Assembly: GCF_009296025.1 (NCBI RefSeq)
Contig: NZ_CP045178.1
Coordinates: 7,068,001 to 7,132,000 of the forward strand
From: Streptomyces tsukubensis
Lineage (GTDB): Bacteria; Actinomycetota; Actinomycetes; Streptomycetales; Streptomycetaceae
DNA: 64,000 nucleotides
Direction: 5' to 3'
How positions within the stretch are numbered: the stretch's first letter is position 1; the number at the start of each line of letters is the position of its first letter. The translations under genes and the position numbers were made by a program. Positions 11,121 to 25,075 of this stretch are shown piece by piece. Under the pieces are notes generated by a model that saw only the letters and a list, made by a program, of their open reading frames with translations, was not told where the DNA came from and did no database searches.

Positions 11121-11155
11121 GGTGGCGGCCACGCCGAGAAGGTGTGGCCGCCACC
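11121..11155 (+). terminator. Hairpin terminator after the cutinase gene
   Basis: A perfect 12-bp GC stem (11121-11132 with 11144-11155) encloses an 11-nt loop, 30 bp after the cutinase stop. There is no U-tract, as is common for Streptomyces terminators. Confidence 0.75.
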
Positions 11156-11318
11156 GGCCTTGTGCCCCGGCACAGATGTGGTCCCTCAGCCCTGGGCACC
11201 GGCACACCCTGCCAGCACCACTTCGGGCACCGGCGCAGGCGGGGCGGGTCCCGAGCCGTCCGGGTACGCGTGGACAGTGGCCTTCCGAGGCGCGTTACGC
11301 GCGGGTAACGTCACCGCA

Positions 11319-14300
11319 ATGACGCGACGGACGAGCGCGCGAGACCTTCCACCGATGCACGGCCGCGCCACGGAGTGGCGGGCGGTGTCGACCCTCCTGG
11401 ACCGGACGGGGTCAGGCGGGGGAGCGCTCCTCGTGACCGCGGGGCCGGGGTTCGGCCGCACCACCCTGCTGGAACACGCCGCCCACGCCCCTGGTTCCCG
11501 CCACGTACTCCGGGCCAGGGGCGTCCTCGCCGAGAGCCGCATACCGTACGGCGGACTGCACGCGGTGCGGTACGCGGCACTCGACGGGGGACGCCGGGGC
11601 GCGTCCGCCGTCGATACCGGGGGCCAGCCACCCGCGGACCAAAGGCGCCGGGCCGGGCGGGCCGCCGAAGCCCAGGACGGGCTGCTCACACTCCTGCGGG
11701 AGGTGGGGGCGCGGGGCCCCGTCCTCCTCTGTGTCGACGACGCCCATCTGTGGGACGCCCCCTCGCGGGCCGCACTCGGCTTCGCGGCCAGAAGGGCGCA
11801 CGCGGTGGGCCCGGTGGTCCTGCTCGTGTCCGTCGCGGGGCACCGGGCCGCGGACCCCGACTTCGCGGGACTGCCCGTGCTGGACCTCGGCCCGTTGCCC
11901 CGCCAGGCGTCCGAAGCCCTCCTCGACGATCTGCCCGAGGCGCCCAAGGACCCGGCGGTCCGTGCCGAGTTACTGGTCCGGGCCGCGGGCAACCCCGCAC
12001 TCCTGCTCGCCCTCGTCCGGCGCCTGTCGGCCGCCGAACGGGCAGGACATGCGGTACTGCCCGACGCGAACGCCGAGGCCGAGCTGCTCGGCGAACTGTT
12101 GAACAGCGTGCTGGGCCCGCCCCTCACCGCCCCCTCCACCCTCGGCCCCTCGACGGGCCCGGGGGCGCACCTGGCACTGGTCGCGGCAGCGGCACACGAA
12201 CACGAACGGGAAGGCGCGGGAGCCGACGCCCGCCTCGTCCACCGCGCGGCCACGCTCCTCGCCCGCGCGGCGGGGCTGGCTGCCGTACCGGGGACGGAAG
12301 CGCCGGGGACGGCCGTACCGGGGGCTGCCGTGCCTGGGGTGGCCGTACCGGCGGCGGACGCGCCGAAAGGCCGTACCGACTTCGGCACTCCGGGAGAGCC
12401 CGGAACCTGGCCGGACGTCCTGCGCGTGGTCGGTGCCCGAGTCCACTTCACCGCCGACCTCATACGCCGTGCCGTCTACGCCACCGCCCCGCCCGGCCCG
12501 CGCGGCAGCGCCCACCGAGCGCTCGCCCGGCTCCTGGAGGCCGACGGCCGGCCTCTCGCGGCGCTCCTGCACCGGGCACTGGCGGCGCCGGCCCCGTCAC
12601 CCGCCCTCGCGGCGGAACTCGCCAGGGCCGCCGCCGACCCGGCAACGCCGGACGCCGGCCGACTGCGGGGGGCGGCCCTCGCCCGCGCCGCCGAGCTGGC
12701 AGGCGACGAGGGCTCACGCGCCCGCTGGCGCACGGACGCGGCCGAACACGCCCTGCGCGCCGACCGTCCCCACGAGGCCCGCAGGCTACTGCTCGCCGCG
12801 GTGAGCGGCGGCCCCGCGCCGCGTGCCGTACGCGGCCGGGCCGAACTGCTGCGTGGCCGAATGGCGTTGCGCGAGGGCCCGATGGCCGACGCGCACGCGT
12901 CCCTGATGCTCGCGGCCTCACTGCTCGGCCCCACCGGTCATGGCGCCACCGAGGCGCGGCTCGCCGCCGCCGACGCCGCGTGGGCCGCGGGGGACGTGAC
13001 GGCCTGCCTGACCGCACTGGGAGCCGGTACCCGGGACCCGGATCCGGCCCCCGAGGGAACCTGGGAGCCGCCCGCCGTGTCCGGTACTTCGGACTCCGGG
13101 CCGGTCCTCGAAGGGGTCTGGGAGCCGCCCGCCGTGTCCGGTACTCCGAACTCCCGCCCGGCCCCCGGAGGGGCCTGGCAGCCGCCCGCCGTGTCTCTCC
13201 CCCCTCCTCCCCACGGGGTGCGACCCGCACCGCGCCCGGCGATGTGGGGCGGCGGTCGGACCGACCTCGCCCGCGACTACGGCCTGGGCATGCGCGCCCT
13301 GCTTGAGGCGCGGCTCGACCGGGCGGCCCGGCCGCTGCGCCGCGTACTGGAGCAGGCGCGGGAGGAGGACACGCCGGAAGTACTGCTACGAGCAGGGGCG
13401 GCGGCGCTCCTGCTCGGTGACGTGGGTGCCGCGTGCGGCCTCGGGGCGCGCGCGCTGGCCGCGGCCCGTGCGGTGGAGCCGGGACTCCTCGTCCCCCGGG
13501 CCCTGGAACACCTCGCCTACGCCGAACTCCGCGCGGGAAGGCACGCCAGAGCCCGCGCCCACGCCGAGGAGGGACTGCGCGCGGCGCTCCGCTCGGGCCA
13601 GGTCAACCTCGTCGCCCACCATCACGCGGTACTCGCTCTGGCGGCGTCCATCGAGGGCGACACGAAAGTGGTGGCGGGGCATGTGGCGGCGGCCCGGGTG
13701 ACGGCGCGCCGCAACGGGTTGGCACAGGCGGCGACCCTGGCCGAATGGGCTGCGGGGCGAACGGAGTTGGGGCGGGGCCGCCTGGTCGAGGCCGCCGCCC
13801 GTCTGGGCCCCCTGGTGCGCCCGGGTGGACCGGGCGGACATTTCGCCGTGCGGATGCTGGTCATGCCCTGCGCCGTCGAGGCGGCGGTGCTCGCGGGACG
13901 GCCGGAGGAGGCCCGCGCGACGGCCGAGGAGTTCGCCCTGTGGGCGGATTTCGGCGCCGATGCGCAGGCCCTGCCGCAACTCGCGCGATGCAAAGCCCTG
14001 TTGGCCCCACCGGAGATGGCGGGGCCACTGTTCGAGCAGGCGCTGGCCCTGCACGAACAGTGTCAGGGAGGCGACTTCGAACAGGCCCGCACCCAACTTC
14101 TGTACGGCAAGTGGCTGCGGCGCAGACGCAGACCCCGCGAGGCGGGCGACCGGCTACGAGAGGCCCTGACCGCCTTCGACCGCTGCGGGGCGCACCTCTG
14201 GGCCGAGCAGGCGCGCGGTGAACTGCGGGCAGGAGGTGCGGGGGTGAGCGACGCGCGCGCGGGAGCACTCACCTGCCTGACACCGCAGCAACTGCGTATC

Positions 14301-14474
14301 GCCCGATGCGTCGCCGAGGGCGCCACCAACCGAGAGGTGGCGCTGCGTCTGTCGGTGAGTACCCGCACCGTCGACCACCACCTCCGCAATGTCTTCGCCC
14401 AGCTCGGCGTGCGCTCCCGCGTGGAACTCGCGCGCCTGGTCGAACGGACGGAGAAGACGGGGGCGCGCCCGTAG
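11319..14474 (+). CDS. LAL-type LuxR family transcriptional regulator
   Basis: 1,051 residues from the ATG at 11319; upstream in-frame starts would run into the terminator hairpin. An N-terminal STAND/AAA-type ATPase has a Walker A-like segment at residues 42-49 (GPGFGRTT) with Arg47 where Lys is usual, and a good Walker B (LLCVDDAHLWD). A long helical, TPR-like middle follows, then a LuxR HTH at the C-terminus (LTPQQLRIARCVAEGATNREVA through STRTVDHHLRNVF). At 13053-13200 a 19-residue unit with the core WEPPAVSGT is repeated about 2.6 times, and around 12290-12365 a Pro-Gly-Ala five-residue motif is repeated. Large LuxR regulators of this type usually activate catabolic or secondary-metabolite genes. 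The GH114 gene is convergent, only 38 bp away. Confidence 0.9.
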   Translation: MTRRTSARDLPPMHGRATEWRAVSTLLDRTGSGGGALLVTAGPGFGRTTLLEHAAHAPGSRHVLRARGVLAESRIPYGGLHAVRYAALDGGRRGASAVDTGGQPPADQRRRAGRAAEAQDGLLTLLREVGARGPVLLCVDDAHLWDAPSRAALGFAARRAHAVGPVVLLVSVAGHRAADPDFAGLPVLDLGPLPRQASEALLDDLPEAPKDPAVRAELLVRAAGNPALLLALVRRLSAAERAGHAVLPDANAEAELLGELLNSVLGPPLTAPSTLGPSTGPGAHLALVAAAAHEHEREGAGADARLVHRAATLLARAAGLAAVPGTEAPGTAVPGAAVPGVAVPAADAPKGRTDFGTPGEPGTWPDVLRVVGARVHFTADLIRRAVYATAPPGPRGSAHRALARLLEADGRPLAALLHRALAAPAPSPALAAELARAAADPATPDAGRLRGAALARAAELAGDEGSRARWRTDAAEHALRADRPHEARRLLLAAVSGGPAPRAVRGRAELLRGRMALREGPMADAHASLMLAASLLGPTGHGATEARLAAADAAWAAGDVTACLTALGAGTRDPDPAPEGTWEPPAVSGTSDSGPVLEGVWEPPAVSGTPNSRPAPGGAWQPPAVSLPPPPHGVRPAPRPAMWGGGRTDLARDYGLGMRALLEARLDRAARPLRRVLEQAREEDTPEVLLRAGAAALLLGDVGAACGLGARALAAARAVEPGLLVPRALEHLAYAELRAGRHARARAHAEEGLRAALRSGQVNLVAHHHAVLALAASIEGDTKVVAGHVAAARVTARRNGLAQAATLAEWAAGRTELGRGRLVEAAARLGPLVRPGGPGGHFAVRMLVMPCAVEAAVLAGRPEEARATAEEFALWADFGADAQALPQLARCKALLAPPEMAGPLFEQALALHEQCQGGDFEQARTQLLYGKWLRRRRRPREAGDRLREALTAFDRCGAHLWAEQARGELRAGGAGVSDARAGALTCLTPQQLRIARCVAEGATNREVALRLSVSTRTVDHHLRNVFAQLGVRSRVELARLVERTEKTGARP
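13053..13200 (+). repeat. 57-bp tandem repeat inside the LAL regulator gene
   Basis: Units begin at 13053, 13110 and 13167. Each encodes a 19-residue stretch with the WEPPAVSGT core, the third being truncated and diverged. The 57-bp period is in frame, so this is a linker expansion rather than a disruption. Confidence 0.9.
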
Positions 14475-14512: not shown

Positions 14513-15340
14513 TCAGCAGGCCCGGCGCCACGCCCCCAGCTCCCACCCCTTTCGCATGGAGGAGAGTCCCAGCCTGCGGGACTCGGGGCAGAAGCGGTGG
14601 GTGGGCTCGGTGTACTCGACGTGGAAGACCGCCTTGCCGCCCTTGACGAACGGTGTGAGCCGGGCGCACTCGTGGTACTGCGCGCACTGCTCGTTGACCG
14701 CGAAGTCGAAGGCGTGAACGAGCTGCGGGATCTGCGGCAGGTCGTTCTTCAGGCCCACGGCCAGGCCACGATCGTGGGCGATGTCAGCGATCATGCGGTT
14801 GTACGTGAGCTGGTCCCGCGCGGTGAGCGGGAAGCCGGTGTCGTCGGCGTACCCCTCCACGAGGTCGGGCTCCACCGCGTCGAACCCCTTCTTGCCGCAC
14901 ATGTCGAACCGCCGCTCCATGATCGGCCGCAGCAGGGAGATCCGCCGGATGTCGAGCCAGCGCTCGCCCTGCCAGCCGTTCGGCCCGCCCAGCACCGAGC
15001 GGGGAAAGGCGTCCTTGTCGGGTCGGTAGTCCTCCCAGGCGCCCACGTTGATGTAGCAGATCACCTTGCGGCCTGCGCGGTGCAGCCGGGCCACGTCCGC
15101 GGCGGTGTTCTCGAAGCCGTCGATGTCGTAGACCGGCACGTCGGCCGAGTCGGCGTCGACCTTCCCGTCGAGCTGCCACTGCCAGGCCAGCCCGGGACGG
15201 GGCTGCCACAGTCGCTGCCGGGGCGCGTCCGACGAAGTGCCCCGGCCGCCGCCCGTACCGGAACAACCGGTCAGTACGGTCGTCACCGAGACCGCGAGCA
15301 CGATCAGGAGGGTCGCCCACGTCCGGGCTCCGTGGATCAC
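14513..15340 (-). CDS. GH114-like endo-alpha-1,4-polygalactosaminidase lipoprotein
   Basis: 275 residues from the GTG at 15340, whose GTGA overlaps the stop of the upstream gene. The N-terminus is a lipoprotein signal with lipobox LTGC (Cys26), so the enzyme should sit on the outer face of the membrane. The rest is a TIM-barrel of the GH114 type: WQWQLDGKV and PVYDIDGFEN (Asp72) early, KVICYINVGAWEDYRPD, and the catalytic-strand motif GFDAVEPDLVEGY (Glu157, Asp159), then a GLAVGLKND strand. GH114 enzymes, including Aspergillus Ega3, cleave alpha-1,4-linked galactosamine polymers. It is the last gene of the operon and probably trims, releases or recycles the polymer made by it. Confidence 0.88.
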   Translation of the reverse strand: MIHGARTWATLLIVLAVSVTTVLTGCSGTGGGRGTSSDAPRQRLWQPRPGLAWQWQLDGKVDADSADVPVYDIDGFENTAADVARLHRAGRKVICYINVGAWEDYRPDKDAFPRSVLGGPNGWQGERWLDIRRISLLRPIMERRFDMCGKKGFDAVEPDLVEGYADDTGFPLTARDQLTYNRMIADIAHDRGLAVGLKNDLPQIPQLVHAFDFAVNEQCAQYHECARLTPFVKGGKAVFHVEYTEPTHRFCPESRRLGLSSMRKGWELGAWRRAC

Positions 15341-15999
15341 CGTCCCGCCCCCGACAGTACCGGTGTAAGCCCGGACCAGGGATTGGGCGGTTCCCCGGTC
15401 ACCGGTCCCGACACGGCGGCGCCACGCTCCCCGGCGGTGCGCACGGCCAGCGGGGCCAACGCGTCGGGCACGCCGTACACCAGATGGCAGAATCGCTCGG
15501 GCGGATGGCGCGCCGTCCAGTCGGGTCTGCTGAACGCCGACACATAGGTGGTCCAGGGGCCCTCGAACGTGACGACGAGATCGGCGTTCCTGGCGTAGCC
15601 GGGGGCCGGGTGCACGCCCGGATTGAGGACCACGAGCGACGCGCCCTGTCTGCGCAGCGCGCGCACCAGCTTTCGGTAGGCGGGCAACGCGTCCTCGGAC
15701 GCGCTCACCCGGTCCAGGAAACAGCCCTCGGTCGCGTACCACTCCCGGTGCCGAGCGGCGTCGGCGGTGACATCCGCGGCGGGGCGGGTGCCGTAGTCGG
15801 TGTCCACGTAGCCGAGCAGCCGGGCGCCCGCTCCGCGCAGCGCGTCCGCCGCGGAGACGAAGGCGGGATCGGGCGCGTCGCCCGGCCCGTCCGCGGGGTT
15901 GAGTACCACCGCGTAGGTACGGTCGGCCGCGGTGATGAGCCGGTGCCAGGCGCCGGGGTCCACGGCCGGGTGGATGTACAGGGGGATCAGCAGGCTCAC
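15337..15999 (-). CDS. Spherulation-specific family 4 (GH135/Sph3-like) protein
   Basis: 220 residues from the GTG at 15999, in a GTGA overlap with the SDR stop; its own stop overlaps the GH114 start the same way. The sequence follows the spherulin-4 pattern: IPLYIHPAVDPGAWHRL, the AVVLNPADGPG strand, LLGYVDTDYGTR, a GCFLDRVS strand, VVLNPG and a VVTFEGPW strand carrying a candidate acidic residue. As I remember the family, FLD/FFD is followed by Glu; here it is Arg. The Aspergillus homologue Sph3 is an endo-acting hydrolase of galactosaminogalactan. No signal peptide or membrane anchor is seen, which is odd for a glycan hydrolase, so a cytoplasmic or membrane-associated role is possible. Confidence 0.75.
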   Translation of the reverse strand: MSLLIPLYIHPAVDPGAWHRLITAADRTYAVVLNPADGPGDAPDPAFVSAADALRGAGARLLGYVDTDYGTRPAADVTADAARHREWYATEGCFLDRVSASEDALPAYRKLVRALRRQGASLVVLNPGVHPAPGYARNADLVVTFEGPWTTYVSAFSRPDWTARHPPERFCHLVYGVPDALAPLAVRTAGERGAAVSGPVTGEPPNPWSGLTPVLSGAGR

Positions 16000-16922
16000 G
16001 TCGTCAGTTCGCCTTCCAGGCGGGCGGGCGGGGGGTGGGCGACGGCCGACCACAGCGCCGCCAACGACTCCCGGAGCGTGTACGAGGGGCGCCAGTCGAG
16101 GGCGGTCCTCGCGGCGGAGATGTCGGAACACTGCCAGGACACCAGCTCCGAGCGGCCGGAGCCCGCACCCTGTTCCTCGACGCGTCCACCGAAGTGCGCG
16201 ATGTCAGCGAGCGTACGCACCAGTTGGCGTACCGGTACGGCCTCGCCGCCGCCGATATTGAGCACGCGCGGCAGCGGCCCGGGTGCGGTCACCGCCCGGG
16301 TCACCGCCCGTGCCACGTCGCGTACGTCGACGAAATCGCGGTACGCCGACAGGTCACCGAGACGGAGCACGGCGTCCGAATCGGACCCCGCCTCGCGCAA
16401 CAGCCCGGTGACGCGTCCCGGCAGCCCGGTGGGCGGGGCTCCTGGCCCCACCGGGTTGCCGACCCGCAGGACGAGCGCGTCCAGAGCGGAGGCCGAGACG
16501 GTGACCGTGCCGGCCAGTTTCGTGGCCCCGTAGGCGCTGAGCGGGCGGGTGGCCGCCGACTCCGACGTCGGGACCCGGCCGGTCCCAGGGCCGTACTCGG
16601 CTGCCGAACCGAGATGGACCAGCCGGGCCGACGGGCAGGCCAGAGCCATCGCCGCGCACAGGACGGCCGGGCCCCTGGAGTTGACCTCCGCCAGCGTCAC
16701 CGGGTCGCCCCCGGTCGCACCGGCGCAGTTGACCACGGCGTCGGGCGCCACCGCGGCCAGGGTCTCCGCGAGCCGGCCGGCGGAGTCGGTCGCGAGGTCG
16801 ACGGGCACGCCGGCGGCGGGGGACCGGCCGCCGGCGAGGACCCGCGCGCCCCGGAGGGCGCCGAGCCGCTCGGCGACGTGGGCCCCCAGATAGCCGGTGG
16901 AACCCAGGACGAGAATGCGCAT
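15996..16922 (-). CDS. NAD(P)-dependent sugar epimerase/reductase (extended SDR)
   Basis: 308 residues from the ATG at 16922, 7 bp after the nucleotidyltransferase stop and with GGGAG upstream. Rossmann motif GSTGYLGAH is at residues 7-15. The catalytic region is HLGSAAEYG followed by YGATK (Tyr and Lys of the YxxxK pair). FVDVRDVARAV and LNIGGGEAVPVRQL are typical of extended SDRs such as RmlD or GalE relatives. In context it probably reduces or epimerises the keto-sugar nucleotide made by the LegB-like dehydratase; the exact sugar cannot be read from sequence. Its stop overlaps the start of the GH135-like gene. Confidence 0.85.
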   Translation of the reverse strand: MRILVLGSTGYLGAHVAERLGALRGARVLAGGRSPAAGVPVDLATDSAGRLAETLAAVAPDAVVNCAGATGGDPVTLAEVNSRGPAVLCAAMALACPSARLVHLGSAAEYGPGTGRVPTSESAATRPLSAYGATKLAGTVTVSASALDALVLRVGNPVGPGAPPTGLPGRVTGLLREAGSDSDAVLRLGDLSAYRDFVDVRDVARAVTRAVTAPGPLPRVLNIGGGEAVPVRQLVRTLADIAHFGGRVEEQGAGSGRSELVSWQCSDISAARTALDWRPSYTLRESLAALWSAVAHPPPARLEGELTT

Positions 16923-16929
16923 ACGGTGC

Positions 16930-17643
16930 TCAGACTCCCTTGAGCAGCAAGGACTTGCGGCTGGTGAACTCCGCGTTGGCACGGTCGTAGTCGTCGGGAC
17001 GGCCGATGTCCAGCCAGTAGCCGTCGAATTCGTAGGCGTGCGGCGGGTTGCCGGAACCCAGCAGGTCCAGCACCAACTCGTCGAAGCCCAGCGGCAGTCC
17101 TGCGGTGTACCCGTCGAGTGTGGCCCGGGTCAGCCCGTACACCCCCATGGAGACGCGGTAGTCCATGCTCGGCTTCTCGGTGAAACCGACGACCTTGCTG
17201 TCGGCGGTGGTGAGTACCCCGAAGTCGATGCGCACCTGGCGCGCGTACGTGGCGATCGTGAGAGGCGCTTCGGAGACCTGGTGGCGGCGGAGGAGGGAGG
17301 CGTAGTCGAGATCCGTGAGGATGTCTCCGTTCATCACCAGGAAATGCTCCGGCAGCCGCTCACGCATGGTCAGCAACGGGCCCATGGTGCCCAGCGGGGC
17401 CTCCTCGGTGGAGTAGCCGACTGTCAGGCCCCACTGGGAGCCGTCGCCGACGTAGGCCCGGATGATCTCGCCGAGATGGCCTATGGCGATGGTGCAGCCG
17501 GTGAATCCGGCCGAGGCGAGCTGGCGCAGGACGATCTCAAGGATGGCGTGCTGGTCGCCGATGGGCACCAGCGGCTTGGGCAGGGCCGTGGTGTAGGGCC
17601 GCAGCCGGACGCCCTTGCCTCCGGCCAGGATCACTGCGTGCAT
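16930..17643 (-). CDS. Sugar-1-phosphate nucleotidyltransferase
   Basis: 237 residues, starting 34 bp after the LegB stop behind an AGGGGGAAG ribosome site. The N-terminal pyrophosphorylase signature is intact (AVILAGGKGVRLRPYT, then PKPLVPIGDQ), as are the metal-binding segment LVMNGDILTD and the FTEKP and YWLDIGRPDDY blocks. The length fits a minimal RmlA/GMP-type nucleotidyltransferase without the C-terminal left-handed helix. It activates a hexose or hexosamine-1-phosphate to an NDP-sugar. Lying between the two SDR genes, it presumably supplies or channels the activated sugar for the polymer. Confidence 0.9.
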   Translation of the reverse strand: MHAVILAGGKGVRLRPYTTALPKPLVPIGDQHAILEIVLRQLASAGFTGCTIAIGHLGEIIRAYVGDGSQWGLTVGYSTEEAPLGTMGPLLTMRERLPEHFLVMNGDILTDLDYASLLRRHQVSEAPLTIATYARQVRIDFGVLTTADSKVVGFTEKPSMDYRVSMGVYGLTRATLDGYTAGLPLGFDELVLDLLGSGNPPHAYEFDGYWLDIGRPDDYDRANAEFTSRKSLLLKGV

Positions 17644-17677
17644 GGTCTTCCCCCTTGCTCGACGTGCCGGACGTGGG

Positions 17678-18679
17678 TCAGATGTTGTAGATGCCGGTCT
17701 TGTAGCGGGCGAGGTTGGCCGGCTCGCGGAAGAAATCCACCGTGTGGGCGAGGCCCTCCTCCAGGGTGTGCGCCGGGCTCCAGCCGGTCGCGGCGCGCAG
17801 TCGGCCGGCGTCCGCGACCAGCCGCATGACCTCCGAGTTGGCCGGACGCAGCCGCTGCGTGTCCTCGCGGACGTCGAGCCCGGTCTCCATCACCTTGCCG
17901 ATGAGGGTGACCAGGTCGCCGACGGAGATCTCGCCGCCGGTTCCGGCGTTGAAGGTGCGGCCCACGACCTGCTCTGCGGGGGCGGAGCCGACCGCGAGGA
18001 ACGCCTGCGCGGTGTCCTTGACGAAGGTGAAGTCGCGGGTGGGGCGCAGGTCGCCGAGGGTGATGGTCCGCTCCCCGGCCGCGACCTGGCCGATGACGGT
18101 CGGGATCACCGCCCGCATGGACTGCCTCGGCCCGAAGGTGTTGAACGGCCGCAGCGTCACCACCGGGGTGTCGAAGCTGGCGTGGTAGCTGTCGGCCAGC
18201 CGGTCCCCGCCCGCCTTCGAAGCCGCGTACGGCGACTGGGTGTTGATGGGGTGGTCCTCGGTGATGGGCACGGTCTGCGCGGTGCCGTAGGTCTCGCTGG
18301 TCGAGGTGTGCACCAGCCGCGGTGTGCCCGCGGCCCGTACCGCCTCCAGCACGTTCAGTGTGCCGGTGACGTTGGTGTCCACGTAGCTGTGGGGCGCCCG
18401 GTAGGAGTACGGGATGGCGATGAGAGCGGCCAAGTGGTAGACGCTGTCGGCACCTTCGACGAGATGGCGGACCGAGCCCGGATCGCGGACGTCGCCGAGG
18501 ACGACCTCGACCTGGTCGAGGACATCGGGGGAGAGGGTCTCCAGCCAGCCGTACGAGGAGAAGGAGTTGTACTGCGCCATGGCTCTCACCCGGTGTCCCG
18601 AGGCGACGAGCGCCTCGGTGAGGTGGGAACCGATGAAGCCCTCGGCTCCGGTGACGGCGGCGAGCGGTGGTGCGGTCAA
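17678..18679 (-). CDS. LegB-like NAD-dependent UDP-GlcNAc 4,6-dehydratase
   Basis: 333 residues. I chose the TTG at 18679, because GGAAGG lies 9 nt upstream and the open frame farther up only translates an 8-bp repeat. The protein has the NAD-binding AVTGAEGFIGSH, HLAALIAIPYSY, YVDTNVTGTLNVL, STSETYGTAQ, SPYAASKAG (YxxxK), RPFNTFGPRQS, AVIPTVI, PTRDFTFVKDTA and a C-terminal YKTGIYNI. This combination is what I associate with LegB-type dehydratases, which convert UDP-GlcNAc to a 4-keto-6-deoxy intermediate. The polymer may therefore contain a deoxy-aminosugar. A plain 4-epimerase role cannot be excluded. Confidence 0.85.
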   Translation of the reverse strand: MTAPPLAAVTGAEGFIGSHLTEALVASGHRVRAMAQYNSFSSYGWLETLSPDVLDQVEVVLGDVRDPGSVRHLVEGADSVYHLAALIAIPYSYRAPHSYVDTNVTGTLNVLEAVRAAGTPRLVHTSTSETYGTAQTVPITEDHPINTQSPYAASKAGGDRLADSYHASFDTPVVTLRPFNTFGPRQSMRAVIPTVIGQVAAGERTITLGDLRPTRDFTFVKDTAQAFLAVGSAPAEQVVGRTFNAGTGGEISVGDLVTLIGKVMETGLDVREDTQRLRPANSEVMRLVADAGRLRAATGWSPAHTLEEGLAHTVDFFREPANLARYKTGIYNI

Positions 18680-18700
18680 GGTGGGTGGCCTTCCGTGGTT

Positions 18701-18748
18701 GCGGGTTTGCGGGTTTGCGGGTTTGCGGGGTTGCGGGTTTGCGGGTCG
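18701..18748 (-). repeat. 8-bp tandem repeat in the leader of the LegB-like gene
   Basis: The plus strand reads GCGGGTTT three times, then GCGGGGTT, GCGGGTTT and GCGGGTCG, six 8-bp units in all. The array lies 22-69 bp upstream of the TTG start and between the membrane-protein gene and LegB, so unit number would alter leader length. Confidence 0.9.
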
Positions 18749-18792
18749 CGGGACGTGGGTCGCGCGTTTGCGGGCGGTGGAGCGGAACGGCG

Positions 18793-20260
18793 TCAGCCGT
18801 GGGCGGCCGGCCGGCCCAGCTGTCGCAGGGCCACCGCGACGAGACAGAGGACGGCTCCGCCGCAGCACAGCGGCAGCGCCGCGGAGCCCGGTGGGGAGCC
18901 GGTCAGCAGCACCGCGCCCGCGCACACCGCCGCGGTGAGACACAGAGCCGCCGGTGGCCACGCGGTGCCGAACGCCTGGAGCAGCAGCGAGATCCACAGC
19001 GCGGCGGCGAGCAGGAGCAGGGTGACGGGCTCGACGTCCACGAGCAGCGCCGCCGGTGCGAGCGGAGCGAGGTACACCAGCAGGCAGCCGGCGAGAACGG
19101 CGGCGGAACGGGCACGGAACCCGGCAGGTGTCCTCGTGGACCGCAGAGCCGCCACCGACAGTCCGCGGTAGCGGTACAGCAGCCACTCGGCAGGCCCCAT
19201 GCTCAGGGTCAGTACGATCGCCGCCCAGGGATGGTCCCGGCCCGCCAGGAACACCAGCGACCCGGCGGCCAGCCCGAACAGCCCGTACGGGAGGGACGGC
19301 CACAGTCCCGGACGCGTGGCACCGGGCGCCGCCGGGGCCGTGCGGGTGGCGCGCAGCGCCCAGCCGGCCGCGGCGACGGCGCCGAAGAGCGACAGCAGCG
19401 GCAGCACGGCCCGGAGCACGGTCCCCGGCTCCCCCACAGCAGCGCGGCCCTCCGGCCGCGACCGGCGCGAGTACCGCGAGCAGCAACCGCTCCCGGCCCA
19501 GGAGGAGCAGCACACCCGCCGCCGCCAGGTACGCGGACTGGGCCGTGACGGCCAGTGCCGTCGCACCCGCCCCCGCGAGCGCGACTCCCGCTCCGGCCGC
19601 CACCGCGGCGCCCAGCGGCGCCCCCTTCGCCAGGGTACGGCCCGCCTCCCTGCGCCCGGTCGCCAGGCGCGTGTACGCCCGGTGTCCCAGTGCCTGGTTC
19701 CAGGCCCAGGAGATCAGCCCGGCCACCACCAGCGCCCGCACCGTGCCGTCAGGTGGCAGCAGCCGTCCGGCGAGCGCGTAGGCGAGGCCTGGCAGCGCGA
19801 ACAGCAGACCTCGCAGGGCACAGCGCAGATGGTCGGGGCGCCAGGGATCGGCGGGCCGCCGAGGCTCGGGGAACGCCCTCGGTATGCGCTGGTAGACCGC
19901 CGTGGCCAGCGAGAACAGATCGGCGTGCCCGTACTTCTCCCGGATCACCTCGCCGGTGAATCCCTCGGACTCCAGCAGCGCGGCGACCTCGTAGGGGTGG
20001 ACCGCGGAGGCGACGCGGTCGGCCAGTTCGGCGGCGAGCCCGTCCACCGCCTCGCGCCGCGCTCCTCGGCCGGGCACGACCAGGGCCAGGGTGTGCTGGT
20101 CGGCGACGCGCGGGGCATGGGCGCGGTCGTCGGTGAGGCGCCGCAGGGCCAGGGTGTGCTGGTCGGTGGCGCGCGGGGCGCGGGTGCTGTCCTCGGTGAG
20201 GCGCAGGGCCAGCGTGTCCTGTTCCGCGCCGCCCGGCTCCAGCCACATGGGTCCGCTCAT
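18793..20260 (-). pseudogene. Polytopic membrane protein of the EPS operon, interrupted by a frameshift
   Basis: The first ~274 codons start at the ATG at 20260, in an ATGA overlap with the PelF-like stop. The hydrophobic protein then continues only in another frame, from about 19440 down to 18793. One extra base in the C5 run at 19431-19435 (plus strand) would explain the shift; restoring it gives about 489 residues. The N-terminus carries a repeated DQHTLAL motif, then a soluble helical segment (HPYEVAALLESEGFTGEVIREKYG), then about ten membrane helices. By position it could be the polymer exporter or synthase partner, like PelG/PelE in Pel loci, but I see no convincing PelG sequence motif. 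It may be a genuine pseudogene, a sequencing error or programmed frameshifting. Confidence 0.7.
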
Positions 20261-21780
20261 CCGGCCGCGCTCCTCACCGGTGACCTGCCCGCCGTCGCCG
20301 GCGCGCGTTCCTCGGGGGCCGGCGGCACGCTGCGGCCACCTGACGCCGACAGCTCCAGATAGATGGAGCGGAAGGTGTCGATGGTCTGCCGGAGGGTGAA
20401 CTGCTCGATCACCCTGAGCCGGGCCGCCTCACCGATCCTCCGGCGCCGCTCGGCGTCGGCCAGCAGCTCCAGCGCCGCGGCGGCCATCGCGGCCGGATCG
20501 CGGGGCGGCACCACGAGACCGGTGTCGCCGACGGCCTCCCGGACGCCGCCCACGTCCGTGGAGACGGTCGCCCGCCCGCAGGACATCGCCTCGATCAGAG
20601 TGAAGGGGAAGCCCTCGCTGATGCTGGAGAGCATCACGATGTTGCCCGCGGCGTAGGCGTCCTTGATGTCATCGACCCGGCCCTCGAAGGTCACCGCGTC
20701 GGCGTGGCCCAGTTCAGCGGCCAGTGCCTCGCACCGGTCCCGGTAGGCCTCCCCGCCGCGTGGCGTGCCGCCGAACAGGCGCAGCCGCGCCGCGGGCACC
20801 CGTGCCCGTACGAGGGCGAAGGCGCGGATCAGGGTCTCCAGGTCCTTGATCGGGTCGACACGGCCGGCCCAGCTGAGTACGGGATCGACCGGCTCGGGGC
20901 CCGCGGGCGGGAACGCGGCGGGGTCGACGCCGTTGTAGACCGTCCGGATCGACTCGGGCGCGGCGCCGCCGCGCTCCTCCCAGAGCCGGTTGTAACGGTT
21001 GCCCGGGGTGATCAGGGCGGCCCGCCGGTACGTCTCCTCCGCCAACAGCCGGAAGAAGCCCAGCACAAGCGCCTTCACCGGCCACCGGTAGGGGGCGGTT
21101 CGGTACCCGAGGTAGCGCTCGCGCAGATAGACGCCGTGCTCGGTGAGCAGCAGCGGCACCCCGTGCCGATGCAGCGCGGCGAGGCCGGGCAGGGCCGCCA
21201 CGCCGCCACTCACCGCGTGCGCCACGCCCGCATCGGGGAACGGCGCGGCCAGCGGGCGCAGCGCGTGCTCCAGCAGCGTGGTCGCGGTCACGGCGTCCTG
21301 AAGGGTCGGCCGGGCCTCGCGCACCGCGAGTCCGGGCCGGTTCCACAGGGACGTCAGAATGCGGATGGCACGGTCCCCGCGCAGGAACGGACTGAGTCCG
21401 CCGTCCTCGGCGGCCCGTGCGAGCGTGTACAGGGCCGGGCCGAAGCCGTCCTCGGAGCGAGGGTCGAGCAACGCCGTCACGAAGCGCTCGTAGGACTCGG
21501 CGAGCCGCCCGAGATGGGGTCCGCGCGGCGCGCGCCCGTCGGGCGTGGGCCCCCACATGGGGACGGAGACGATGCGGTCGACGTGGGCCGGGACGTCCCA
21601 GACGACCGGCTCGCGGCCGGTGCCGGTGACGGCGATCACGTCGAAGGCGATGTCGGGCATGCCGGTGACGAGTTGGTCGCACCAGACGCTCACACCGCCG
21701 TGACTGTGCGGATAGGTGCCTTCGGTGAGCAGGGTGACGCGTGGCGCGGCGGGGTGTCGCGCGCCCGGGGGTATGTGCAT
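20257..21780 (-). CDS. pelF: PelF-like GT4 glycosyltransferase
   Basis: 507 residues from the ATG at 21780, with GGAG 8 nt upstream; a longer open frame exists but lacks coding character. The N-terminus VTLLTEGTYPHSHGGVSVWCDQL is the hallmark of the PelF group of GT4 enzymes, and the length equals that of PelF. The C-terminal Rossmann domain has GRVDPIKDLETLIRAF, EGRVDDIKD, and the EX7E motif in ISEGFPFTLIEAM, then the DVGGVREAV phosphate-binding loop. There is no signal or membrane segment, so it is cytosolic. PelF uses a UDP-N-acetylhexosamine donor to polymerise Pel; here it is the only glycosyltransferase in the operon, so it probably makes the main chain. The stop overlaps the membrane-protein start. 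Confidence 0.9.
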   Translation of the reverse strand: MHIPPGARHPAAPRVTLLTEGTYPHSHGGVSVWCDQLVTGMPDIAFDVIAVTGTGREPVVWDVPAHVDRIVSVPMWGPTPDGRAPRGPHLGRLAESYERFVTALLDPRSEDGFGPALYTLARAAEDGGLSPFLRGDRAIRILTSLWNRPGLAVREARPTLQDAVTATTLLEHALRPLAAPFPDAGVAHAVSGGVAALPGLAALHRHGVPLLLTEHGVYLRERYLGYRTAPYRWPVKALVLGFFRLLAEETYRRAALITPGNRYNRLWEERGGAAPESIRTVYNGVDPAAFPPAGPEPVDPVLSWAGRVDPIKDLETLIRAFALVRARVPAARLRLFGGTPRGGEAYRDRCEALAAELGHADAVTFEGRVDDIKDAYAAGNIVMLSSISEGFPFTLIEAMSCGRATVSTDVGGVREAVGDTGLVVPPRDPAAMAAAALELLADAERRRRIGEAARLRVIEQFTLRQTIDTFRSIYLELSASGGRSVPPAPEERAPATAGRSPVRSAAG

Positions 21781-21934
21781 CGATGTGCTCCACGGCCGGG
21801 AAGCGGGGGTGTCGGGCCCGGGGGTCGCGGGGCCCGGCCCGGCCGCCGCACAGGCGGCCGGGACAGGACGGGACAGGCAGGAGGGGACAGGACGGGGCGG
21901 GAGGGGTGGGGCAGGAGCGGCGTGCGTACGCCTG

Positions 21935-24070
21935 TCAGCGCTCCGCGCCGTAGGGGACCCGCTTCTCGACGCCGGCCGGCACCTTGGTCCTGGGCGCGGC
22001 GGGTGTCGGCGGGGCGGGCTTCCCTGCCGGCTCGACCGCCGCGGCCGGCGCACCGGCCGACGTCGGCACGTCCAGGGTGTACGGCAGGCCGTCGGCCGAG
22101 GCCCAGCCGGAGACCGCACCCGCGTAGGCGGCCCCGAAGCCCGTGCCGCCGTGCTGAGTTCCGGCGGGCATGGTGGCCGTGAGCGCCACGCCGTCGGGTG
22201 TCCGCACGGTCACGCTGTCGCCGATCCGGTACGCGCTGACCTGGCCCGCGTCCAGGGCGGCCCGCCAGGCTGCCCGGCGCTGCATCTCGACGCCGATCTC
22301 CTTCATACGGAGATTCACCACGGGGGTGTCGTCGGTGAACAGGTCGTCGTAGTCGCCGAGCACACCGTCGAGCACCGGGTAGGCGATGCGGTCCTCGGTG
22401 AGGTTCGACTGGTGGATGAAGTGCGGCTTGGGGTCGTTGGCGAGGACGTGCCCCAGTGCGATCCGGGTCTCCAGCGGCACGATGTGGTCGGTGTAGCCGG
22501 TGGCGGTGTCCAGTGGCGCGGACAGGCAGGTGGAGGTGGCGGGGTTGTCCTCGCAGATCCCGCTGCCGCCCTGGGCGCGGCTCGTGTAGAACCAGTTGTA
22601 CTCGTCGACCTGTTCGGACGCGCGCCCCGCGTTGTAGAAGACGTTCATCGGGTAGCGGGAGACGGTGGTGGCGGGCCCCACCTGGCGCTGCACGGGGTCA
22701 CGGGAGTTGTCCGAGCCCAGCCACTTGATGCCCGTGTCGGTGAGGGCAGGCCCCAGGTTGGGGTTGTCCACCGGCTGCTGCGGGCTCAGTTTCAGACCGG
22801 AGTGCTCGCCGGTGACCAACTCCTCCTTCTGGAGCGGAAGTCCGGCCGCCACGCCCCACGCCTCGTTGGTCGCGATCTCGTCGACGATGTCGTTCCTGCT
22901 CACCCACCGGGTGGAGCCGTCCGCGTTCGTCGCGCACTTCCACGGCACCACACTGGTGTCCTGCACGCAGCCCAGGTAGGCGTGGGTGTAGGTGTGGTTG
23001 ATCCATCGGAACCGGTCGCGGTCGGCCTTCAACTTGTCGGCGAGGGCGTCCTGGCCGCCGTTGTCCTCACGGTAGTCCTCGGACCCTGAGGCGTTGTAGG
23101 CGAAGTCGAGGGTGAAACCCCGGCTGTTCTGCCAGGCGGAGGCGTGGTCGACATCGGCCGGGACCATACGGATCGGGTCAGGGGCGCCCTCGCCCGGCTG
23201 GCAGTCCACGTCGCCCGGCGTGCAGTTGAGTTCGGTGTCCCAGCGGTCGTCGGCGGCGAAGACGTCATCGACGTGGACCGCGAAGTAGTTGCGTTCGGCG
23301 CCGAGGTGCACCCCGCCGGTCATCCACTCCACGATGCCCCTGGCCAGCAGCCGGTACTGCTGCTGGTACTGGTTGTAGACGAAGGTGACGACGAGTTCAC
23401 GTCTCCCGTCGTGCCGGTACTCGCCCACCAGGGAGCCCTTCGTCGACCTGCCGGGGACGGCGGCCTGGACGTAGGGGACGAAGTCGGCGCCGGTGGCGGG
23501 TGTCGAGAGGTAGGCGTAGGACTCGCCCACCGTGGGGGAGTTGTCCTCGAACGGGACAGCGCCCTCCAGGTAACCGAAGGCCCCGGCCTTGCCTGCCTGC
23601 GTCACCTCGGCCCGCACCCCGTCGATGCTGCCGGCGTAGCCCGTACCGACCGCGGCGTTGAGCCCTACCTGGGGACGTGCGTAGGTGTAGGCGTCGACCT
23701 GCGGGACCGAATACGTCTGCTCGTAGGCCGTCAGGGCCGCCATCTCGGCGGAGCCCGTCGGGAACGGGTTGTCGTTGGGCAGGACGACGGCCTGGTACTT
23801 CGCACGTGGCCGGCCGTCGACCGTGTCGGCGAGGAAGCCCGCGTCGATCGTGGCCCGGCCCGTGTCCTCCAGATCGACCTCGGTGTACGGCGTTCCCGCG
23901 TTCTCCAGTTCTGCGGCGATGGCTTCGGTGGACGGCCCCCCGTCGCTCACGACGAGCACGCGCAGATCTATGCGCGGTGTCTGATCGTCCGCCTGTGCCG
24001 TGGCGGCAGGCAGCCCGATGGCCGCCAACATGCCCCATATGAGCGCGGTGGTGCGAATGGTCCGCTTCAT
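21935..24070 (-). CDS. Agd3-like (CE18) secreted polysaccharide deacetylase
   Basis: 711 residues with a signal peptide (cleavage after AQA, about residue 27). Residues 33-250 form an alpha/beta region opening with RIDLRVLVVSDGG, resembling the N-terminal carbohydrate-binding and Rossmann-like part of Agd3. The catalytic part has a metal-binding Asp pair in HVDDVF (Asp268, Asp269) and an HxxxH in NHTYTH (His359, His363), with a later HIVPLETRIALGHV block. This pattern matches the CE18 enzyme that deacetylates galactosaminogalactan in Aspergillus and differs from standard NodB enzymes. The C-terminal ~60 residues are Pro/Ala-rich with no anchor seen. As first gene of the operon it probably converts GalNAc-type residues to cationic galactosamine outside the cell. 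Confidence 0.82.
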   Translation of the reverse strand: MKRTIRTTALIWGMLAAIGLPAATAQADDQTPRIDLRVLVVSDGGPSTEAIAAELENAGTPYTEVDLEDTGRATIDAGFLADTVDGRPRAKYQAVVLPNDNPFPTGSAEMAALTAYEQTYSVPQVDAYTYARPQVGLNAAVGTGYAGSIDGVRAEVTQAGKAGAFGYLEGAVPFEDNSPTVGESYAYLSTPATGADFVPYVQAAVPGRSTKGSLVGEYRHDGRRELVVTFVYNQYQQQYRLLARGIVEWMTGGVHLGAERNYFAVHVDDVFAADDRWDTELNCTPGDVDCQPGEGAPDPIRMVPADVDHASAWQNSRGFTLDFAYNASGSEDYREDNGGQDALADKLKADRDRFRWINHTYTHAYLGCVQDTSVVPWKCATNADGSTRWVSRNDIVDEIATNEAWGVAAGLPLQKEELVTGEHSGLKLSPQQPVDNPNLGPALTDTGIKWLGSDNSRDPVQRQVGPATTVSRYPMNVFYNAGRASEQVDEYNWFYTSRAQGGSGICEDNPATSTCLSAPLDTATGYTDHIVPLETRIALGHVLANDPKPHFIHQSNLTEDRIAYPVLDGVLGDYDDLFTDDTPVVNLRMKEIGVEMQRRAAWRAALDAGQVSAYRIGDSVTVRTPDGVALTATMPAGTQHGGTGFGAAYAGAVSGWASADGLPYTLDVPTSAGAPAAAVEPAGKPAPPTPAAPRTKVPAGVEKRVPYGAER

Positions 24071-24547: not shown

Positions 24548-25075
24548 TCAGGCGCACAGTACGCGGGTCTCGGGCGTGTAGGCCGGACCGCCGCTGAGGC
24601 TGGTGCTGTCGCTGAACTCCGCGTAGAAGTACGAGTAGAAGCCGATGTTGCCGTTGCAGCCGGAGTCGGCGGCCACCTGCAAGGTCAGGGTGACAGTGCG
24701 GCTCTGGCCGGGCGGGACGGTGGCGCCGTAGTTGCCGCCGAGGTCCGCGGGGCCGGTGCCGGAACACGGGACGGCCCCGGCGTCCGTCGCCAGACTGCAG
24801 CCGGTGAAGCTGTACTTGAGGTCGGGGCGCTGGGTGGTCAGCCAGGTCGGGTCGATGGACTGGTAGACGAACCAGATGTCGTACGTCTGGTTGTTCTTGA
24901 TCGTCATCGACAGGTTCACCGTGCCGCCGGGTGTGGTGGTGGCGGCGTCGGTACTGAACGACAGCTCGGCCGGGGCCGGGTCGGCGGCGCTCGCGGAGGG
25001 GGCCAGGCCGAAGAGGGCGACGGCGAGAGCGAAGACAGTGGCGAGACCGAAGCGTCTCGTGCTGAGGAATCTCAT
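24548..25075 (-). CDS. Small secreted protein, function unknown
   Basis: 175 residues with a clear Sec signal peptide (RR, a hydrophobic core, and ASA cleavage near residue 30). The mature part is beta-rich and begins PAPAELSFSTDAATTTPGGTVNLSMTIKNNQ, like a CARDB/Ig-type stalk or DUF11-like bacterial surface fold. Four Cys could form two disulfides, and the protein ends at a Cys near the C-terminus. No anchor is seen, so it is probably released. It precedes the EPS operon on the same strand but is separated from it by a terminator, so a functional link is uncertain. Confidence 0.75.
   Translation of the reverse strand: MRFLSTRRFGLATVFALAVALFGLAPSASAADPAPAELSFSTDAATTTPGGTVNLSMTIKNNQTYDIWFVYQSIDPTWLTTQRPDLKYSFTGCSLATDAGAVPCSGTGPADLGGNYGATVPPGQSRTVTLTLQVAADSGCNGNIGFYSYFYAEFSDSTSLSGGPAYTPETRVLCA

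What the first reader, a model, noticed from the sequence alone, without database searches (positions are those of the whole stretch)
14513..24070. Bacterial operon with the parts list of the fungal galactosaminogalactan cluster plus PelF
Eight collinear, mostly overlapping minus-strand genes encode an Agd3/CE18-like deacetylase, a PelF-like GT4, a polytopic membrane protein, a LegB-like dehydratase, a nucleotidyltransferase, an extended SDR, a spherulin-4/GH135-like protein and a GH114 lipoprotein. Aspergillus makes galactosaminogalactan with a GT4 enzyme (Gtb3), an epimerase (Uge3), a deacetylase (Agd3, CE18), and hydrolases Sph3 (GH135) and Ega3 (GH114). Pel loci use PelF and a deacetylase. 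Having all the fungal functional classes in one actinobacterial operon suggests a cationic, deacetylated aminosugar exopolysaccharide. The LegB-like enzyme implies a possible deoxy-aminosugar, which would distinguish it from both known polymers. I know of no described Streptomyces system like this but cannot search.
Basis: partly seen in the sequence, partly recalled or inferred. Interest (0 to 1): 0.88.

Follow-up and report, generated by a model that had tools for sequence, protein, structure and literature searches.

The report
Streptomyces cationic-polymer operon with deoxysugar cassette
A gene set that Streptomyces bacteria share in outline with a biofilm-sugar cluster of moulds comes here with three extra sugar-making genes, and the genes that build and cut the polymer appear re-tuned to match, which suggests a chemically different sticky coating that can be tested.

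Summary
The operon is real, with corrections. GH114, GH135/spherulin-4, PelF-like GT4, LegB-like dehydratase, nucleotidyltransferase and SDR are present. The deacetylase is Agd3/CE18-like by family and motifs, though the window's copy scores below the Pfam cut-off. The membrane-protein gene is frameshifted in this strain.

The general idea is published: Bamford et al. 2020 (PMC7229062) describe bacterial agd3 operons with a GT, a polytopic protein, GH114 and, in some Actinobacteria, spherulin-4.

I found no description of two parallel versions. "Core" operons (agd3-GT-membrane protein, usually GH135 and GH114) lack sugar-nucleotide genes. "Type B" operons, including this one, carry an inserted LegB-NTase-reductase trio. 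Trio presence splits the genus's agd3 and GT trees cleanly. Of 18 chosen two-copy genomes, 14 hold one of each.

The trio goes with active-site changes. The residue after the GH114 nucleophile is Asn in 20 of 21 core operons and in fungal Ega3, but aliphatic in each readable type B enzyme, including one from another family. Four GT positions also split the types. A ninth, secreted gene lies upstream in 74 of 88 type B loci and 0 of 30 core loci.

Best reading: a deacetylated, GAG/Pel-like polymer built partly from a 6-deoxy-aminosugar. No chemistry is shown.

The parts
24548..25075 (-). Ninth gene, not in the finding: small secreted protein (175 aa, signal-peptide-like N-terminus by eye), no annotated family
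   Evidence: tblastn: upstream of agd3 on the same strand in 74 of 88 type B loci with room, 0 of 30 core-only loci; no Pfam/NCBIfam hit above cut-off
21935..24070 (-). g1, Agd3/CE18-like secreted deacetylase, 711 aa
   Evidence: Agd3_CE 18.9 bits, below cut-off; 30 of 31 proteins match at E<=0.1; D268-D269, H359xxxH363, H553 invariant and R472 at 90% or more in A4, counterparts by motif order of Agd3 CM1-CM4
20257..21780 (-). g2, PelF-like GT4 glycosyltransferase, 507 aa
   Evidence: NF038011 PelF 173.7 bits, cut-off 100
18793..20260 (-). g3, polytopic membrane protein, frameshifted in the window (halves in two frames, change at about 19,430-19,450)
   Evidence: single ORF in 83 of 86 loci; alignment with relatives; no Pfam family matched by more than 1 of 30 relatives at E<=0.1, PelG not among them
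17678..18679 (-). g4, LegB-like NDP-sugar 4,6-dehydratase (TTG start)
   Evidence: TIGR04180 453.5 bits, cut-off 475; T-S-E triad and YxxxK, the GMD-type signature [ST]SE of Table 1 in PMC8987622
16930..17643 (-). g5, sugar-1-phosphate nucleotidyltransferase, nearest solved relative mannose-1-phosphate guanyltransferase
   Evidence: PF00483 129 bits; best PDB hit 7d72, 1e-26
15996..16922 (-). g6, extended SDR, probable 4-keto-reductase
   Evidence: best PDB hit 6x3b, GDP-6-deoxy-D-mannose reductase, 9e-17; G-S-A-A-E-Y-G and YxxxK, without the Glu of the dehydratase triad
15337..15999 (-). g7, spherulin-4/GH135-like protein, apparently without signal peptide (GTG start overlaps g6 stop)
   Evidence: Spherulin4 125 bits; Sph3 1e-13; D98 and E148 kept (numbering of window:15337-16005), residue after D98 is R or Q in the segments shown for both types, E in Sph3
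14513..15340 (-). g8, GH114 lipoprotein (LTGC lipobox by eye), Ega3-like
   Evidence: 281 bits; Ega3 1e-54; nucleophile-flanking PDLxE instead of PDNxD

Best explanation
This is a member of the published family of bacterial agd3 operons, in a variant whose building block is set by its own sugar-nucleotide cassette. Inferred steps: g5 activates a sugar phosphate, most likely GlcNAc/GlcN-1-P to GDP-GlcNAc. g4 removes C6-OH and oxidises C4. g6 reduces C4. The product would be an NDP-6-deoxy-HexNAc (FucNAc- or QuiNAc-like). The PelF-like GT4 (g2) polymerises it, alone or mixed with ordinary HexNAc, together with the membrane protein g3, which would export it. Agd3-like g1 partly deacetylates it outside the cell, giving a cationic, adhesive polymer. 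Lipoprotein GH114 (g8) trims or frees it. GH135-like g7 looks cytosolic and may edit the polymer at the synthase. Shown here: gene content, its conservation, the two-type split and the linked active-site changes. Not shown: any sugar, linkage, polymer or phenotype.
For: Family assignments.

Two operon types: of 20 second-group loci fetched, 15 have the core without the trio, 2 have the trio and 3 have agd3 alone.

The trio label is one clean split in the agd3 tree (99/98) and the GT tree (100/100), with 15 core rows and 24 of the 72 type B rows.

14 of 18 chosen two-copy genomes hold one of each, 3 hold type B plus an isolated agd3, 1 holds two type B, 0 hold two core.

GH114 residue after the nucleophile: Leu in 63 of 66 type B by pattern; the other three read by alignment are L181 Leu, L154 Val and Leu (two copies), and L049 a remnant. 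Asn in 20 of 21 core.

GT positions 26, 255, 260 and 374 separate 14 of 14 chosen type B rows, including L154, from 12 of 12 chosen core and GalE rows. Over all loci, residue 260 is Gly in 93 of 93 type B and 0 of 31 core, and residue 374 is acidic in 93 of 93 type B and 3 of 3 type C but 0 of 31 core.

L154's GT lies outside the Streptomycetaceae clade that holds both types (at least 2 changes forced), so the link is seen in two lineages.

C. jejuni LegB acts on GDP-GlcNAc (PMC7439481 passages).
Against: LegB scores just under its cut-off, and NTase and SDR substrates cannot be read from sequence. L130, a core operon, also has Leu after the GH114 nucleophile. The position that I align by eye with PimA Asp253 (guanine contact, PMC9883506) is acidic in 28 of 31 core loci too, so a GDP-versus-UDP switch of the GT is not shown. 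GH114 was not seen in 17 of 69 type B loci, so it is not indispensable. g3 is frameshifted in this very strain. No structure model could be made. Relatedness inflates the counts.
Confidence: 0.5

Rival explanations
1. An ordinary bacterial GAG/Pel-like poly-GalNAc/GalN operon; the trio makes a minor side group or another glycan and does not set the backbone.
For: Core enzymes are the same as in core operons, and core-only operons exist and presumably use housekeeping UDP-HexNAc. The published Agd3 acts on alpha-1,4-GalNAc oligosaccharides (PMC7229062 passages).
Against: GH114 and GT residues change together with the trio in two lineages.
Confidence: 0.27
2. The trio makes a neutral GDP-6-deoxyhexose such as GDP-D-rhamnose, giving a mixed polymer in which only the HexNAc part is deacetylated.
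For: g5 is nearest to mannose-1-phosphate guanyltransferases, g6 to GDP-6-deoxy-D-mannose reductase, and g4 has the GMD-type T-S-E triad.
Against: g4 scores 453.5 bits to LegB against 85.5 to GMD.
Confidence: 0.13
3. The operon is decaying in this strain: with g3 frameshifted no polymer is made.
For: g3 halves lie in two frames, while 83 of 86 loci have one ORF; pairwise alignment with two near relatives shows two one-base gaps in the window.
Against: The other seven genes are open and 85 to 98% identical to those of L034 and L063; a short indel in a GC-rich run may be a sequence error.
Confidence: 0.1

Closest known systems
Bacterial agd3 operons of Bamford et al. 2020 (PMC7229062)
   Same: Agd3-like CE18, cytoplasmic GT, multi-spanning membrane protein, GH114, spherulin-4 in some Actinobacteria (section 13)
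   Different: Section 13 and the passages I read mention no sugar-nucleotide cassette, no split into two types and no linked active-site change; figure and supplement were not seen
Fungal galactosaminogalactan cluster (uge3, gtb3, agd3, sph3, ega3)
   Same: Deacetylase, GT4-type synthase, GH135 and GH114 classes
   Different: No epimerase in this operon; a LegB-NTase-reductase trio is present instead; GT and membrane part are separate genes (that Gtb3 joins them is recalled)
Pel loci, including Gram-positive pelDEADAFG (PMC7112168, passages)
   Same: PelF-like GT4 above the NCBIfam cut-off; deacetylated aminosugar polymer logic
   Different: No PelG found in the genome; no PelG match in g3 relatives; hydrolase and deacetylase are separate genes here
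Campylobacter legionaminic acid pathway (PtmE recalled; LegB in PMC7439481 passages)
   Same: LegB-like 4,6-dehydratase, a nucleotidyltransferase
   Different: No LegC aminotransferase above cut-off in the genome; a 4-keto-reductase-like SDR instead

Membership tests
Bacterial agd3 (CE18) exopolysaccharide operon | Agd3-like protein with CM1-CM4 residues | tested here: met
   DD, HxxxH, H invariant and R at 90% or more in A4; Agd3_CE matched at E<=0.1 by 30 of 31, but below cut-off for the window copy
Bacterial agd3 (CE18) exopolysaccharide operon | GT, polytopic membrane protein and GH114 in the same operon | tested here: met
   the membrane gene is frameshifted in the window
CE18 | Deacetylase activity and three-domain fold | not testable with these tools
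GH114 | Family profile and catalytic Asp/Glu | tested here: met
   281 bits; PD and VNE kept in the window
GH135 | Family profile and catalytic Asp/Glu | tested here: met
   125 bits; FLD and TFE kept, neighbouring Glu not kept
GH135 | Secreted or surface location (recalled for Sph3) | tested here: inconclusive
   GTG start coupled to g6 stop, no room for a signal peptide in the window; crude hydropathy upstream of the barrel: none in 27 of 27 core and 79 of 89 type B; 10 type B frames have a hydrophobic stretch; L159 and L160 of another family do look secreted
Pel operon | PelG | tested here: not met
   0 matches in own genome
Pel operon | PelF | tested here: met
   NF038011 above cut-off
Pel operon | PelD/PelE | not tested
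   no search made
Galactosaminogalactan cluster | UDP-Glc(NAc) 4-epimerase in the cluster | tested here: not met
   neither SDR reaches the GalE cut-off of 262.3: 142.4 and 54.5 bits
Legionaminic acid pathway | LegC aminotransferase | tested here: not met
   best 128.8 bits, cut-off 420
LegB equivalog | TIGR04180 at or above cut-off | tested here: inconclusive
   453.5 against 475 bits

The most novel reading that the evidence does not exclude
The agd3-GT-membrane-GH135-GH114 set is a chassis on which actinobacteria mount interchangeable sugar-nucleotide cassettes: none, GalE, LegB-NTase-reductase, or NTase-reductase-UDP-sugar dehydrogenase-SDR. This yields a family of cationic polymers with different monomers. 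The type B polymer is a poly-6-deoxy-aminosugar unlike GAG and Pel, often made alongside a GAG/Pel-like one in the same cell, with its own secreted partner protein.
Probability: 0.35. Interest if true: 0.75.

Novelty: new variant of a known kind. Interest (0 to 1): 0.55.

Why it matters
To my knowledge the adhesion and hyphal-aggregation polymers of Streptomyces are only partly defined. A matched pair of operons in one genome, one with and one without a monomer cassette, is a ready experiment: delete one, compare polymers. The linked residues in GH114 and GT would show how Pel/GAG-type enzymes read their sugar, and type B hydrolases could be a new specificity of biofilm enzymes.

Tried and rejected
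Pel locus: rejected, no PelG found. Legionaminic acid pathway: rejected, no LegC above cut-off. UDP-to-GDP switch read from the PimA Asp253 position: looked promising, dropped because 28 of 31 core loci are acidic there too. Programmed frameshift in g3: not supported, since 83 of 86 loci need none. Sph3 loss of catalysis by change of the Glu next to the Asp: dropped, as R or Q stands there in both types and the paired Asp/Glu are kept. Rfam: 0 matches at gathering score in 9000-31000. Sigma-70 promoter scan: 0; terminator-like sites: 3, against 1.8 expected. The second LegB-like gene of the genome (C2:3729496) has none of the other operon genes within L140 at E<=1e-4, apart from a weak cross-match of g6 to that same gene.

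Nine paper searches were answered; seven bear on this operon. None of the titles listed is a paper on a Streptomyces agd3 operon with these three genes, but the lists were capped (20 of 86, 20 of 154, 12 of 145), only open-licence papers are held, and most hits were seen as listings.

Papers seen: PMC7229062 passages and section 13; PMC12054363 passages and sections 27, 28; PMC7112168, PMC8987622, PMC7439481, PMC9883506 passages; the rest as search listings. PtmE, the Sph3 location and the make-up of Gtb3 are recalled.

Bias: L034-L113 are the best 80 of 322 matches to the window's agd3, so they favour type B. The 18 two-copy genomes and the rows were chosen by hand. Loci were deduplicated on agd3 (148 of 150 kept) only for the GH114 motif count; the counts were not.
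Full report
OBSERVATION. The eight genes are present at 14513-24070 on the minus strand. Profiles confirm GH114, Spherulin4, PelF-type GT4, a LegB-like dehydratase, a nucleotidyltransferase and an extended SDR. The GH114 protein aligns with Ega3 at E about 1e-54 and the spherulin-4 protein with Sph3 at 1e-13. The deacetylase matches Agd3_CE only below the cut-off (18.9 of 27.6 bits), but 30 of 31 aligned proteins match it at E<=0.1 and 9 of 31 match CBM87_Agd3. Two more distant relatives pass both cut-offs (L156 and L200). The residues that Bamford et al. found essential in Agd3 (D377, D378, H510, H514, R613, H668) have counterparts D268, D269, H359, H363, R472 and H553 by motif order. In alignment A4 of 11 diverse members all are invariant except R472, which is at 90% or more.

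THE MEMBRANE GENE IS BROKEN HERE. g3 is read in two frames in the window. Among loci where both halves are seen, 83 of 86 have one ORF; the window, L075 and L111 do not. Against near relatives L034 and L063 the window shows two one-base gaps at about 19,430-19,450, in a GC-rich stretch. This may be a real mutation or a sequence error. At most 1 of 30 relatives matches any Pfam family at E<=0.1, and PelG is not among those families. Hydropathy of an intact relative (L063) shows many membrane segments, and 1152 database proteins match it at E<=0.001; of the best 120 listed, none carries a precomputed Pfam domain.

DISTRIBUTION. An agd3 homologue is found in 69 of 150 genomes of the genus, in 18 of 296 of the class and, at E<=1e-20 with a broader profile, in 110 of 245 of the order and 9 of 296 of the phylum. 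Of the 80 named loci fetched (the best 80 of 322), 69 show the trio between g3 and g7, in the same order as the window; the other 11 contigs end before it. GH114 was not seen in 17 of those 69, in at least two because the contig ends.

TWO TYPES. Twenty further loci of the more distant agd3 group were fetched. Fifteen have agd3, GT and membrane protein and no trio ('core'); 14 of the 15 also show GH135 and 10 show GH114. Two, L115 and L129, have the trio (type B). Three have agd3 alone. On trees of agd3 and of the GT (15 core rows and 24 of 72 type B rows) the trio label needs one change (support 99/98 and 100/100). In 18 two-copy genomes that I chose, 14 have one type B and one core operon, 3 have type B and an isolated agd3 (two of these with a GH114), one has two type B, none has two core. 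So these are two systems that coexist, not alleles.

OTHER CASSETTES. Outside the genus, L152 is core. L153 has a GalE equivalog (337 bits, cut-off 262) just before the GT and no trio. L154 has the full trio (65, 64 and 44% identity to g4, g5 and g6). L156, and in the genus L200 and L201, have NTase and g6-like SDR with a UDP-sugar dehydrogenase and another SDR (type C). L153 shows what the fungal Uge3 function could look like in such an operon, and the window lacks it. Other distant agd3-like hits (L158-L160) sit in other settings and were not followed.

LINKED ACTIVE-SITE CHANGES. In Ega3 the nucleophile Asp189 is followed by Asn and, two further on, Asp (alignment; Asp189/Glu247 from PMC12054363). 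Core operons keep this: 20 of 21 read PDNxD, L130 reads PDLxD. Of 66 type B loci with a GH114, 58 read PDLxE and 5 PDLxD; the pattern missed three, which I read by alignment: L181 Leu, L154 Val and Leu in its two copies, L049 a remnant. Four of five loci in neither class read PDNxD and one was not read. In the GT, positions 26, 255, 260 and 374 separate 14 of 14 chosen type B rows, including L154, from 12 of 12 chosen core and GalE rows; in agd3 and in GH114 no position passed the same strict filter (L130 breaks the GH114 rule), and in GH135 one did. Over all loci, position 26 is Ser in 91 of 93 type B and Val, Ala or Ile in 31 of 31 core; 255 is Ala or Ser in 93 of 93 and Asp or Arg in 31 of 31; 260 is Gly in 93 of 93 and Cys or Val in 31 of 31; 374 is acidic in 93 of 93 type B and 3 of 3 type C but in 0 of 31 core and 0 of 1 GalE (a full recount because the list was capped). 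Nine further GTs in neither class were left out of these counts: six are type-B-like loci cut by contig ends (five readable at 374, all Asp), and L159 and L160, distant GTs without the trio, have Glu there. Position 374 lies near the loop that binds the nucleobase in GT4 enzymes. The PimA residue known to touch guanine (Asp253, PMC9883506) aligns by eye with position 371, which is acidic in 28 of 31 core loci as well, so I do not claim a nucleotide switch. L154's GT is excluded from the Streptomycetaceae clade that holds both types (100/100; at least two changes forced), so the linkage is seen in two lineages; L154 is a long branch. These are correlations among related sequences, not tests of specificity.

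WHAT THE TRIO MAKES. g4 is LegB-like (453.5 bits) far more than GMD-like (85.5), with the T-S-E...YxxxK triad that Table 1 of PMC8987622 lists for GDP-mannose dehydratase. C. jejuni LegB takes GDP-GlcNAc (PMC7439481). g5's nearest solved relatives are mannose-1-phosphate guanyltransferases. g6's is GDP-6-deoxy-D-mannose reductase, and it lacks the Glu of the dehydratase triad. Together these point to an NDP-linked, perhaps GDP-linked, 6-deoxy-HexNAc. An aliphatic residue next to the GH114 nucleophile would fit a methyl group at C6, but its position relative to the sugar was not checked.

A NINTH GENE. A secreted-looking protein of 175 residues (24548-25075) lies upstream of agd3, on the same strand, in 74 of 88 type B loci with room, in 0 of 30 core loci, and in 11 of 17 truncated or other loci; the gap is 302-899 nt, median 407. 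It has no family above cut-off. Among the 14 type B loci without it are the deep ones L115, L129 and L199.

GH135 WITHOUT SIGNAL. g7 starts at a GTG that overlaps the g6 stop. A crude scan finds no hydrophobic stretch ahead of the barrel in 27 of 27 core and 79 of 89 type B frames; 10 type B frames have one, in sequence that may be read-through of g6; L159 and L160, from another family, look secreted. A role at the synthase is inference.

KNOWN OR NEW. The general kind is published: section 13 of PMC7229062 describes bacterial agd3 operons with GT, multi-spanning protein, GH114 and, in some Actinobacteria, spherulin-4, and its discussion supports transfer of the cluster from bacteria to fungi. 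In seven paper searches that bear on this operon, whose lists were partly capped, I saw no report of the trio, the two types, the linked residues or the upstream gene; the figure and supplement of PMC7229062 were not readable here. I file it as a new variant of a known kind.

Noticed in passing
window 24548-25075 (-): Conserved secreted-looking protein of unknown family upstream of type B operons, not seen at core operons.
   Followed up: partly
window 20081-20236: 63-bp tandem repeat (2.5 copies) inside the N-terminal coding part of g3.
   Followed up: no
window 18699-18746: Six copies of an 8-bp repeat (TTGCGGGT) in the gap between g3 and g4.
   Followed up: no
G000 C2:3729496-3730380 (L140): Second LegB-like dehydratase (425 bits) elsewhere in the genome, near a MurG-like and a WecA-like gene by eye.
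   Followed up: partly
L200, L201, L156: Third operon type with a distant agd3, GT, NTase, SDR, UDP-sugar dehydrogenase and another SDR; L200 also holds a GH114 protein nearest to TIGR01370 (149 bits, cut-off 181).
   Followed up: partly
L153: Relative of another family with a GalE equivalog in the operon and an agd3 with fibronectin III repeats.
   Followed up: partly
L162 and L184: g4 is matched in two pieces, so the dehydratase gene may be interrupted in these two genomes.
   Followed up: no
window 11142-14474 (+): Large ATPase-like protein with a LuxR-type C-terminus next to the operon (by eye).
   Followed up: no
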